NCBI GenBank assembly: GCA_017455665.1
Contig: JAFSZN010000066.1
Coordinates: 1-47,236, forward strand
Length of the DNA stretch: 47,236 nt
Source: Lentisphaeria bacterium
GTDB taxonomy: Bacteria; Verrucomicrobiota; Lentisphaeria; Victivallales; UBA1829
Direction of reading: 5' to 3'
A model generated the notes under the pieces. It saw only the letters and a program-made list of their open reading frames with translations, was not told the DNA's origin and did not search any database. The first letter of the stretch is position 1, and every line of letters begins with the position of its first letter. Positions 45,695 to 47,236 of this stretch are shown here, in pieces. The translations under genes and the position numbers were made by a program.

Positions 45695-46495
45695 ATGTAT
45701 CTTTTCTACATAGACGAATCCGGAAACCGCGATGTCGGGCACATCGAACAGGAACGTTTTTATGTCCTCACGGCGGTCGGAATGTTCGAAGGTCATTGGA
45801 AACGTTTTTACCTCGACATCGCACGCCCCAAACGCAGTATCATTTCACGCATTGAAGCACAACAGGGCATTGCACTTGATTTCGCTGTGGATGCGGAGGT
45901 CAAATCAACGCTTTTGCGGAATGAAAAGGCGCGTCGGAGCCATCCGTTCTCCCTGTATCAGACCGACAAGGAGCGAATGGGCCTTGTCAACGAATTCTAT
46001 TCCCAGCTTGAGAGGTGTAACACCGTCTTGATCTCGGTCGTCATGGACAAAAAACGGATTATTCCCGGTTCACGCCTGGCAAACCAACAGGAGCTTCACA
46101 ACAAGGCGTGGGAATTGCTCTGCGAGAGGGTGGAGGATTTCATGAAAGAACGGCATCCGAAGCACAAGGCCATCCTGATAACGGACGATACCGACAAGCA
46201 GAAGAATCTGCAAACGACCCGTGCCCATGTGAACCTTTATCAAAAAGGTGCGTCATCAGGGCTTTCGTTAAGCCACATCATTGAAATGCCGATGTTTGTC
46301 AGCAGCGCGACATGTGTCGGCGTTCAGCTTGCGGATTTGTGCTGTTACATCGTCTACCGTAGATTCAAGGACGATAATCCAGACTATGAGTTCTTCAAAC
46401 GCATCGAACCCTTTTTCTACAACTCGGCTAACACAGATCCCGACAAGAAAGACGGATTGAAGGTGTTTCCTTCGGCGGGGGAAGTGGAACGGTAA
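45695..46495 (+). CDS. DUF3800 protein
   Basis: 266-residue protein of the DUF3800 family: YLFYIDESGNRDVGHIE at the start, a middle ILITDDTDKQKN acidic strand, and late QLADLCCYIVYRRF. The family is thought to have an RNase H-like fold with acidic residues and is often found in mobile or defence-rich regions; its function is not established. Lower G+C and different codon use from the neighbours suggest transfer. It stands alone, with hairpin repeats of the dispersed family downstream. Confidence 0.85.
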   Translation: MYLFYIDESGNRDVGHIEQERFYVLTAVGMFEGHWKRFYLDIARPKRSIISRIEAQQGIALDFAVDAEVKSTLLRNEKARRSHPFSLYQTDKERMGLVNEFYSQLERCNTVLISVVMDKKRIIPGSRLANQQELHNKAWELLCERVEDFMKERHPKHKAILITDDTDKQKNLQTTRAHVNLYQKGASSGLSLSHIIEMPMFVSSATCVGVQLADLCCYIVYRRFKDDNPDYEFFKRIEPFFYNSANTDPDKKDGLKVFPSAGEVER

Positions 46496-46657
46496 AAAAA
46501 AGAAGTTCGGCTGGGATGACCCATATCGAACTGCACAGCAGTACCGAACTATACCTTTACTATACACGCATTTTGAGCGATTTCAAGTCTCTTTTTGTTT
46601 TTTTTCCGTTTTTTCATGTTATGTATTTGTTTTTTACGCTCTCATACGCAATCTCAT

Positions 46658-46746
46658 CGTGCCGTCGCGGAGCACGGCACTGCTTGGCACACTCCGTGTT
46701 TGCCGTCGCAGAGCTCGGCACTGCCCACGTGGAGGGCTTGCCCTCC
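46658..46746. repeat. Dispersed hairpin repeat, two units
   Basis: Unit 1 forms GTGCCGT-(8 nt)-ACGGCAC (46659-46680). Unit 2 (46700-46721) is a similar, shorter copy about 41 bp further on. GGAGGGC-TT-GCCCTCC (46731-46746) then ends the element, followed by a few T. The linking CACTGCTTG...ACTCCG words match the tandem array at 30082. Confidence 0.7.
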
Positions 46747-46794
46747 CTTTTTGCGAAAAAGTCACGAAATGAGTGAAAAATAACGGAATCCAAC

Positions 46795-46822
46795 TTGAAT
46801 TTTCGGAAATATGGTCTATATT
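46795..46822 (+). promoter_or_regulatory. Promoter of prs
   Basis: TTGAAT (46795-46800), 16 bp, TATATT (46817-46822). The start site would be near 46829. Confidence 0.65.
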
Positions 46823-46849
46823 AATAAGACACGTTGAAACAGAAACCTT

Positions 46850-47046
46850 AATCCGTCTGTTCGGATTCGGTGGGTCGCAGGACCCGCATGACCGCGGGGT
46901 TTTCTTTCATGCACAGGGATTTCCGGCTGATATGCCGCCTCGTTTTCAGGATCCCGGCATGGCGCAGCGACGGGAGCATTTGCTCCGGCTGCGGGAAAAA
47001 AGGACTCGCGTTCGGCCGATTTCCGTACCGCGGACAGGGTGTCTGC
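46850..47046 (+). ncRNA. Candidate structured leader RNA upstream of prs
   Basis: Hairpins in order: AATCCG/CGGATT (46850-46867), GGGTC-GCAG-GACCC (46872-46885), GCATGA/TCATGC (46886-46912), CGGC/GCCG (46924-46937), CGCAGC and GGAGC with GCTCC and GCTGCG (46963-46993), and GCGGACA-GGG-TGTCTGC (47030-47046). ATGCCG (46932) can instead pair with CGGCAT (46955-46960), excluding the fourth hairpin, so two states are possible. No U run follows, so control, if any, would be translational. I cannot match it to a known RNA family. Confidence 0.4.
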
Positions 47047-47089
47047 CAAACATAACCCCTCAACCACGAACGGAAAGACACAGGACACC

Positions 47090-47236
47090 ATGGAAGGAAA
47101 CGCGAGAGACATCAGACTCTACAGCGGGACATCACATCCGAAACTCGCCGAATCGATCGCGCAGTGCCTGGGACAGCAGCTCGGCCACGTGACCGTGCAG
47201 AGATTCCCGGACGGCGAAATTTTTGTCCAGTACAAG
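47090..47236 (+). CDS. prs: Ribose-phosphate pyrophosphokinase, 5' part
   Basis: The first 49 codons of PRPP synthetase are visible; the gene continues past the window. It begins with the family's N-terminal strand and helix: IRLYSGTSHPKLAESIAQCLG, then VQRFPDGEIFVQ. The enzyme makes PRPP from ribose 5-phosphate and ATP for nucleotide, His and Trp synthesis. AGGA is 4 nt upstream of the ATG. The long structured leader upstream may regulate it. Confidence 0.92.
   Translation, partial: MEGNARDIRLYSGTSHPKLAESIAQCLGQQLGHVTVQRFPDGEIFVQYK

What the first reader, a model, noticed from the sequence alone, without database searches (positions are those of the whole stretch)
46829..47089. Long structured leader upstream of prs
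A good promoter is followed by about 260 nt without a gene, carrying six hairpins and two mutually exclusive pairings (ATGCCG with CGGCAT or GCCG with CGGC). Prs controls PRPP supply, a natural target for nucleotide-sensing RNA. It may be a new regulatory RNA or a separate small RNA.
Basis: partly seen in the sequence, partly recalled or inferred. Interest (0 to 1): 0.52.

Follow-up and report, generated by a model that had tools for sequence, protein, structure and literature searches.

The report
New conserved RNA before prs operon
The untranslated start of the mRNA for PRPP synthase in these Lentisphaeria bacteria carries a small three-armed RNA fold that evolution has kept in dozens of related species in front of this one operon, so it is very probably an undescribed gene-control RNA whose trigger is still unknown.

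Summary
Folded alone, the 261 nt are no more stable than shuffled sequence (z -0.59), and one of the two "mutually exclusive" pairings is not conserved. But its first part (window about 46842-46903) is a three-way-junction RNA, 5'-AACCUURAUCC-loop-GGAU-P3-CCRN-RAGGUU-3', conserved far outside the genus. A covariance model found 64 of 65 class-wide matches directly upstream of prs; a later model found 8 of 9 further matches upstream of prs in genomes that had not gone into it (four near-identical genus copies not counted). All three stems show compensatory changes; G.U exceeds A.C 105 to 25 on the + strand. Rfam 15 has no match. Confirmed members are all in one order (named ones: Lentisphaeria/Victivallales). 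The order prs-rplY(bL25) is constant, so gene linkage cannot separate a metabolite sensor for prs from a ribosomal-protein leader. Best reading: a new orphan cis-regulatory leader RNA, riboswitch-like, perhaps acting on translation; ligand unknown. The stretch downstream (46908-47089) is genus-specific.

The parts
46795..46822 (+). promoter-like site TTGAAT-16-TATATT; predicted start of transcription near 46829
   Evidence: consensus scan; conserved in the genus alignment; start not mapped
46842..46903 (+). element A: three-way-junction RNA (model matches cover 46836-46909 with flanks)
   Evidence: covariance models R1, R2, R3
46843..46849 (+). P1, 5' strand AAACCUU
   Evidence: pairs with 46896-46902; helix 1
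46850..46867 (+). P2 hairpin AAUCCG-UCUGUU-CGGAUU
   Evidence: helix 2; compensated in G045 and G073
46870..46887 (+). P3 hairpin GUGGGUC-GCAG-GACCCGC
   Evidence: helices 3 and 4; 40 of 41 members fold better than their shuffles; GGAUC/GAUCC in G005 and GGACC/GGUCC in G004
46888..46895 (+). junction J3/1 AUGACCGC with the invariant CC at 46892-46893
   Evidence: CC in 57 of 57, then a purine
46896..46902 (+). P1, 3' strand GGGGUUU (AAGGUUU in most other genera)
46908..46961 (+). genus-specific hairpin P4 (CAUGC/GCAUG, GGGAU/AUCCC, inner CGGC/GCCG)
   Evidence: RNAalifold on 12 genus sequences
46964..46992 (+). genus-specific hairpin P5 (GCAGC/GCUGC, inner GGAGC/GCUCC), with compensatory changes
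47082..47085 (+). probable Shine-Dalgarno AGGA of prs
   Evidence: direct reading
47090..47236 (+). prs, 5' part; continues on G000:C5 (L003:3-935)
   Evidence: 137-base overlap, ORF, Pfam

Best explanation
Element A is the folded sensing domain of a cis-regulatory leader RNA of the operon that begins prs-rplY-pth-rpsF-ssb. SHOWN: a three-way junction P1-P2-P3 with nearly invariant junction bases, encoded on the + strand soon after the promoter, found almost only in front of prs and once per genome. INFERRED: something binds at the junction and this changes how well prs (and the genes after it) is expressed, more likely at translation than by a terminator. INFERRED and least sure: the ligand is a small molecule that reports PRPP or nucleotide supply. 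The sign of the control is unknown.
For: Linkage: 64 of 65 R2 matches are upstream of prs; 8 of 9 R3 matches in genomes outside its training set; 21 of 22 Lentisphaerota or unlabelled pattern matches and 0 of 10 from other phyla. Structure: 89.0% of cells paired, 120 doubly changed cells against 44.2 in shuffles, slid controls 34-56% paired; P3 segment folds better than its shuffles in 40 of 41. Strand: G.U 105 against A.C 25. Not coding. SD region pairs with the leader better than with shuffled leader in 43 of 57, mean z -0.87.
Against: No ligand, no transcript data. The element was not found at any other nucleotide gene, which one might expect of a PRPP or purine sensor. No switch partner for P1 was found. 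The SD result is weak, its rows are related, and this window's own value is only -0.62. Terminator-like sites in 14 of 57 against 3.6 in mononucleotide shuffles leave transcriptional control open in some lineages. Families f3, f6 and f8 do without it.
Confidence: 0.5

Rival explanations
1. Autogenous ribosomal-protein leader: bL25 (second gene) or bS6, alone or with bS18 (rpsF is the fourth gene), binds element A and represses the operon, so PRPP synthase is co-regulated with ribosome assembly.
For: prs-rplY is adjacent in every locus with enough DNA held downstream; the element precedes one operon only, as r-leaders do; bL25 and S6:S18 are known r-leader ligands (passages of PMC7247131).
Against: No 5S-like word or loop-E-like piece seen in the element against 5S genes of relatives (only five exact words and the eye). 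bL25 here has two domains, while known rplY autoregulation is reported for species with the short form and sits directly before rplY (passages of PMC10931766). Families f3, f6 and f8 keep prs-rplY without the element.
Confidence: 0.3
2. A passive 5' structure: it stabilises the mRNA or aids translation without sensing anything.
For: It lies near the predicted 5' end; some f1 genera have a further short palindrome CCCGATATCGGG before it.
Against: Invariant unpaired CC and conserved junction bases are more than a stabilising hairpin needs.
Confidence: 0.12
3. A separate small RNA that ends before prs.
For: Terminator-like sites after the element in 14 of 57 leaders against 3.6 in mononucleotide shuffles; one overlapping P3/P1 in this window.
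Against: Absent from the other 43; linkage to one downstream operon is nearly perfect; 72-347 nt to the ATG with no second promoter looked for outside the window.
Confidence: 0.05
4. No functional RNA: promoter-proximal sequence conserved as DNA, with chance hairpins.
For: Single-sequence stability is not above chance.
Against: Covariation in three helices, G.U excess on one strand, free length only in P3 and loops.
Confidence: 0.03

Closest known systems
PRPP riboswitch (relative of the ykkC guanidine-I riboswitch)
   Same: A leader RNA concerned with PRPP would be a functional parallel
   Different: No Rfam match. The PRPP aptamer is a four-way junction of P0, P1, P2 and P3 (passage of PMC6031431); element A is a three-way junction with other conserved words
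E. coli L25 (rplY) leader
   Same: Possible autogenous control of an operon that holds rplY
   Different: That leader is an irregular hairpin just before rplY in species with short bL25 (passages of PMC10931766); element A is a three-way junction before prs and bL25 has two domains
S6:S18 leader of rpsF
   Same: rpsF is in the operon
   Different: The known structure directly precedes rpsF (recalled; start of abstract of PMC4647458); no Rfam match in L003 at E<=5
E. coli prs leader
   Same: A long untranslated leader before prs (recalled, no source read)
   Different: No comparison of structure was made; model hits outside the order are not at prs
Twister-sister ribozyme
   Same: The word ACCCGCAAGG occurs in some members and, as recalled, in twister-sister
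   Different: Here it forms J3/1 and the P1 3' strand; no Rfam match even at E<=5

Membership tests
Structured cis-regulatory leader RNA (general kind) | Covarying secondary structure | tested here: met
Structured cis-regulatory leader RNA (general kind) | Consistent position upstream of the same gene or operon | tested here: met
   64 of 65 matches; 8 of 9 outside the training set
Structured cis-regulatory leader RNA (general kind) | Transcribed as part of the mRNA | not testable with these tools
   promoter prediction only
Riboswitch | Aptamer-like conserved unpaired bases in a junction | tested here: met
   CC of J3/1 in 57 of 57
Riboswitch | Recognisable expression platform | tested here: inconclusive
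   weak SD pairing signal, terminator-like in 14 of 57, no P1 exchange partner
Riboswitch | Direct binding of a small molecule that changes expression | not testable with these tools
   needs probing and reporters
PRPP riboswitch (ykkC relative) | Match to the Rfam covariance models | tested here: not met
L25 r-leader | Match to an Rfam r-leader model | tested here: not met
L25 r-leader | Likeness to the 5S rRNA binding site | tested here: inconclusive
   five exact words absent from 10 loci with 5S genes; eye only for loop E
L25 r-leader | Binding of bL25 and repression by it | not testable with these tools
   needs purified protein
Twister-sister ribozyme | Match to the Rfam model | tested here: not met
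   E<=5

The most novel reading that the evidence does not exclude
Element A is a new riboswitch class that senses PRPP or a nucleotide made from it and feeds back on prs itself, and through the operon also on bL25, Pth, bS6 and SSB: one RNA that ties nucleotide supply to ribosome and replication proteins in a poorly studied phylum.
Probability: 0.35. Interest if true: 0.78.

Novelty: new member of a known kind. Interest (0 to 1): 0.62.

Why it matters
PRPP feeds purine, pyrimidine, histidine, tryptophan and NAD synthesis, so control of its synthase is a central decision of the cell. A compact RNA with near-invariant junction bases in front of one operon is a defined target for ligand tests, with natural versions of about 70 nt (for example L082) and a carrier with a complete genome (CP071032.1, strain zth2; loci L118 and L147). 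Whatever it binds, it is a candidate new family for Rfam; a metabolite ligand would make it a riboswitch, a ribosomal protein ligand an r-leader that reaches a nucleotide gene.

Tried and rejected
Whole-leader stability: not above chance, so it carries no weight. ATGCCG/CGGCAT as a switch: not conserved. Exchange of P1 strands with a downstream copy (AACCCC in this genus, ACCUU before the SD in some f1 genera) looked attractive by eye and failed a shuffle test on 57 leaders: mean z 0.21 for the 3' strand and -0.17 for the 5' strand. A universal terminator: only 14 of 57 leaders. A coding leader: ORFs differ in place and length among 13 genus members. Twister-sister: no Rfam support. 5S mimicry for bL25: nothing seen, but the test was shallow.

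Results against the reading, in full. Matches not at prs: R1 three of 51 (G009:C10, G102:C21, G117:C23), R2 one of 65 (G009:C10), R3 one of 54 (G321). No element by eye in the 10 prs leaders read of families f3 (3), f6 (4) and f8 (3), nor in f4 genomes G060 and G079; G048 has at most a degenerate form. For G102, G117 and G095 the script printed nothing; R3 later found G102 and G095 at prs. G013, G036, G081, G085, G090 and G100 have it by eye only and are in no count. In the species-wide pattern scan 10 of 32 records are from other phyla, none with prs near; my own arithmetic had expected about 11 chance matches. For L123 too little DNA was held to see prs; a contig of the same length in G125 has it.

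Dropped before counts. A2 used 23 of 31 members then known (near-identical genus copies and one g3 copy left out). A4 was discarded because three partial matches had entered; A5 (57, E<=0.001) replaced it. The R3 count of 9 leaves out four g1 genomes that were near-copies of training rows. The first alignment had minus-strand loci unturned and was redone.

Full report
Setting. The window is the end of contig G000:C6 of an unnamed draft genome, 69.84% complete. prs starts at 47090 and is cut by the contig end. The first 137 bases of contig G000:C5 repeat the window end, and that contig (L003, 3729 bases) carries the rest of prs, then rplY, pth, rpsF and ssb (Pfam). rplY follows prs in every relative's locus that holds enough downstream DNA (eight loci held 39 bases or fewer). 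Named relatives with the element are Lentisphaeria, several labelled Victivallales or Victivallaceae (lineage).

Observation. The promoter and the geneless stretch are as described. The stretch as a whole is not unusually stable as RNA. In the genus, BLAST finds leader DNA in 13 of 13 genomes and in none of the 48 other genomes of that search (in G001 only a short part). G011 has an insertion of about 170 bases just before the SD.

Element A. The prs leaders of other genera in the family share one block soon after the promoter: CCUURAUCC, a loop, GGAU, a variable hairpin, CCRN, RRGG. A simple expression finds it in 31 of 31 leaders (13 of the genus, 18 of other genera). A covariance model of 23 of these (R1) was run on 137 genomes of the order: 51 matches at E<=0.01 in 50 genomes. 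33 are at prs in the family itself (positions; G031 and G019). Of the other 18, 15 are upstream of prs in families f2, f4 and f7 and 3 are not. R1 had seen only family f1, so these 15 are an independent confirmation. R2 (41 members) on 197 genomes of the class gave 65 matches in 64 genomes, 64 upstream of prs, now also in f5. R3 (57 members) on 387 genomes of the phylum gave 54 matches, 53 in the same order. Of 9 matches in genomes outside its training set (four near-copies in g1 not counted), 8 are upstream of prs and one, G321 in another order, is not (prs of G038, G057, G095 and G102 placed). A strict pattern over one genome for each of 84,980 species gave 32 records: 21 labelled Lentisphaerota or below, one 'uncultured bacterium', 10 of other phyla. 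prs lies within 500 nt downstream in 20 of the 21, in the unlabelled one, and in 0 of the 10. That pattern matched only 17 of the 41 members then known, and it cannot match the window's own genus, so it shows specificity, not full range.

Structure. P1 joins (A)ACCUU with RRGGU(U), P2 is AUCC/GGAU with a loop, P3 is a hairpin of free sequence, sometimes branched. On 57 members 89.0% of cells pair; doubly changed cells number 120 against a shuffled mean of 44.2; slid controls pair 34 to 56%. That alignment was fitted to the model, which favours the structure. Free of that bias, the segment between P2 and the P1 3' strand folds better than its own mononucleotide shuffles in 40 of 41 members, mean z -1.88. 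Inner pairs that hardly vary also change together in single genomes: CCUC/GAGG in P1 (G052), CUCU/GGAG in P1 (G100, by eye), AUUC/GAAU in P2 (G073), AUCA/UGAU in P2 (G045, by eye). In the window's genus the UU/AA of P1 is UU/GG, which stays paired. G.U against A.C is 105 to 25, so the RNA is read from the + strand. J3/1 has CC in 57 of 57, then a purine.

Rest of the leader. 46908-46992 folds into two hairpins with a few compensatory changes inside the genus; nothing like them was seen in other genera. From element to ATG the leaders measure 72 to 347 nt. The SD region pairs with the upstream leader somewhat better than with dinucleotide shuffles of it: 43 of 57, mean z -0.87. This hints at control of translation, but rows are related and this window scores -0.62. 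Terminator-like sites occur in 14 of 57 (3.6 expected from mononucleotide shuffles). P1 strand exchange with downstream copies is not supported.

What it is. An orphan cis-regulatory leader RNA is by far the best fit: structure, strand, position and linkage are shown. Ligand and mechanism are inferred. My first choice is a small-molecule sensor of PRPP or nucleotide state, because prs is the first gene and the junction holds invariant unpaired bases. The strongest rival is an autogenous ribosomal-protein leader, since bL25 and bS6 follow in the operon and since the element is not found at other nucleotide genes. Families f3, f6 and f8 keep prs-rplY but the leaders read lack the element, so it is a lineage-specific regulator.

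Known or not. Rfam 15 has no match at gathering thresholds in the window other than tRNAs, only a chance snoRNA match in the leader at E<=5, only a tRNA in 12 loci at E<=1 and two chance matches in 16 loci at E<=5. Paper searches on prs leaders, prs motifs, Victivallales with riboswitch and structured RNA in Lentisphaerae listed nothing that describes it. Of papers I saw search listings, and passages of PMC2864571 ('prs' 0 times, Lentisphaerae once, for another motif), PMC7247131, PMC10931766 and PMC6031431. The paper on 224 candidate RNAs is not held. Supplements and most subscription papers were not searched, so prior description elsewhere cannot be excluded. Strain zth2 appears in PMC11361711 (search listing only).

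Noticed in passing
L172, L174, L175, L176 (family f6 prs leaders): These lack element A but share another pattern: UUGGGUC early in the leader and CUCCCCAAU just before the SD, which could pair (UUGGG/CCCAA). Possibly a second prs leader class.
   Followed up: no
window 46640-46760: Intergenic palindromic repeat with a terminator-like hairpin GGAGGGCUUGCCCUCC upstream of the prs promoter; 20 matches in the draft genome, most of them short pieces. Looks like a dispersed REP-like family.
   Followed up: partly
L010/L026 (G011), between leader and prs SD: Insertion of about 170 bases just before the prs SD in one genus member; its nature was not studied.
   Followed up: no
window 45695-46495: DUF3800 protein gene, same strand, just upstream of the prs promoter region.
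   Followed up: no
L030:1501-1537 (G001:C21): The prs promoter region resembles the promoter region of another gene in G001, whose product looks like acetate kinase (recalled).
   Followed up: no
L047, L048, L097 (genus g7) before prs: A tiny ORF AUGAAGGGAAAAUGA overlaps the prs start codon in this genus; possible translational coupling.
   Followed up: no
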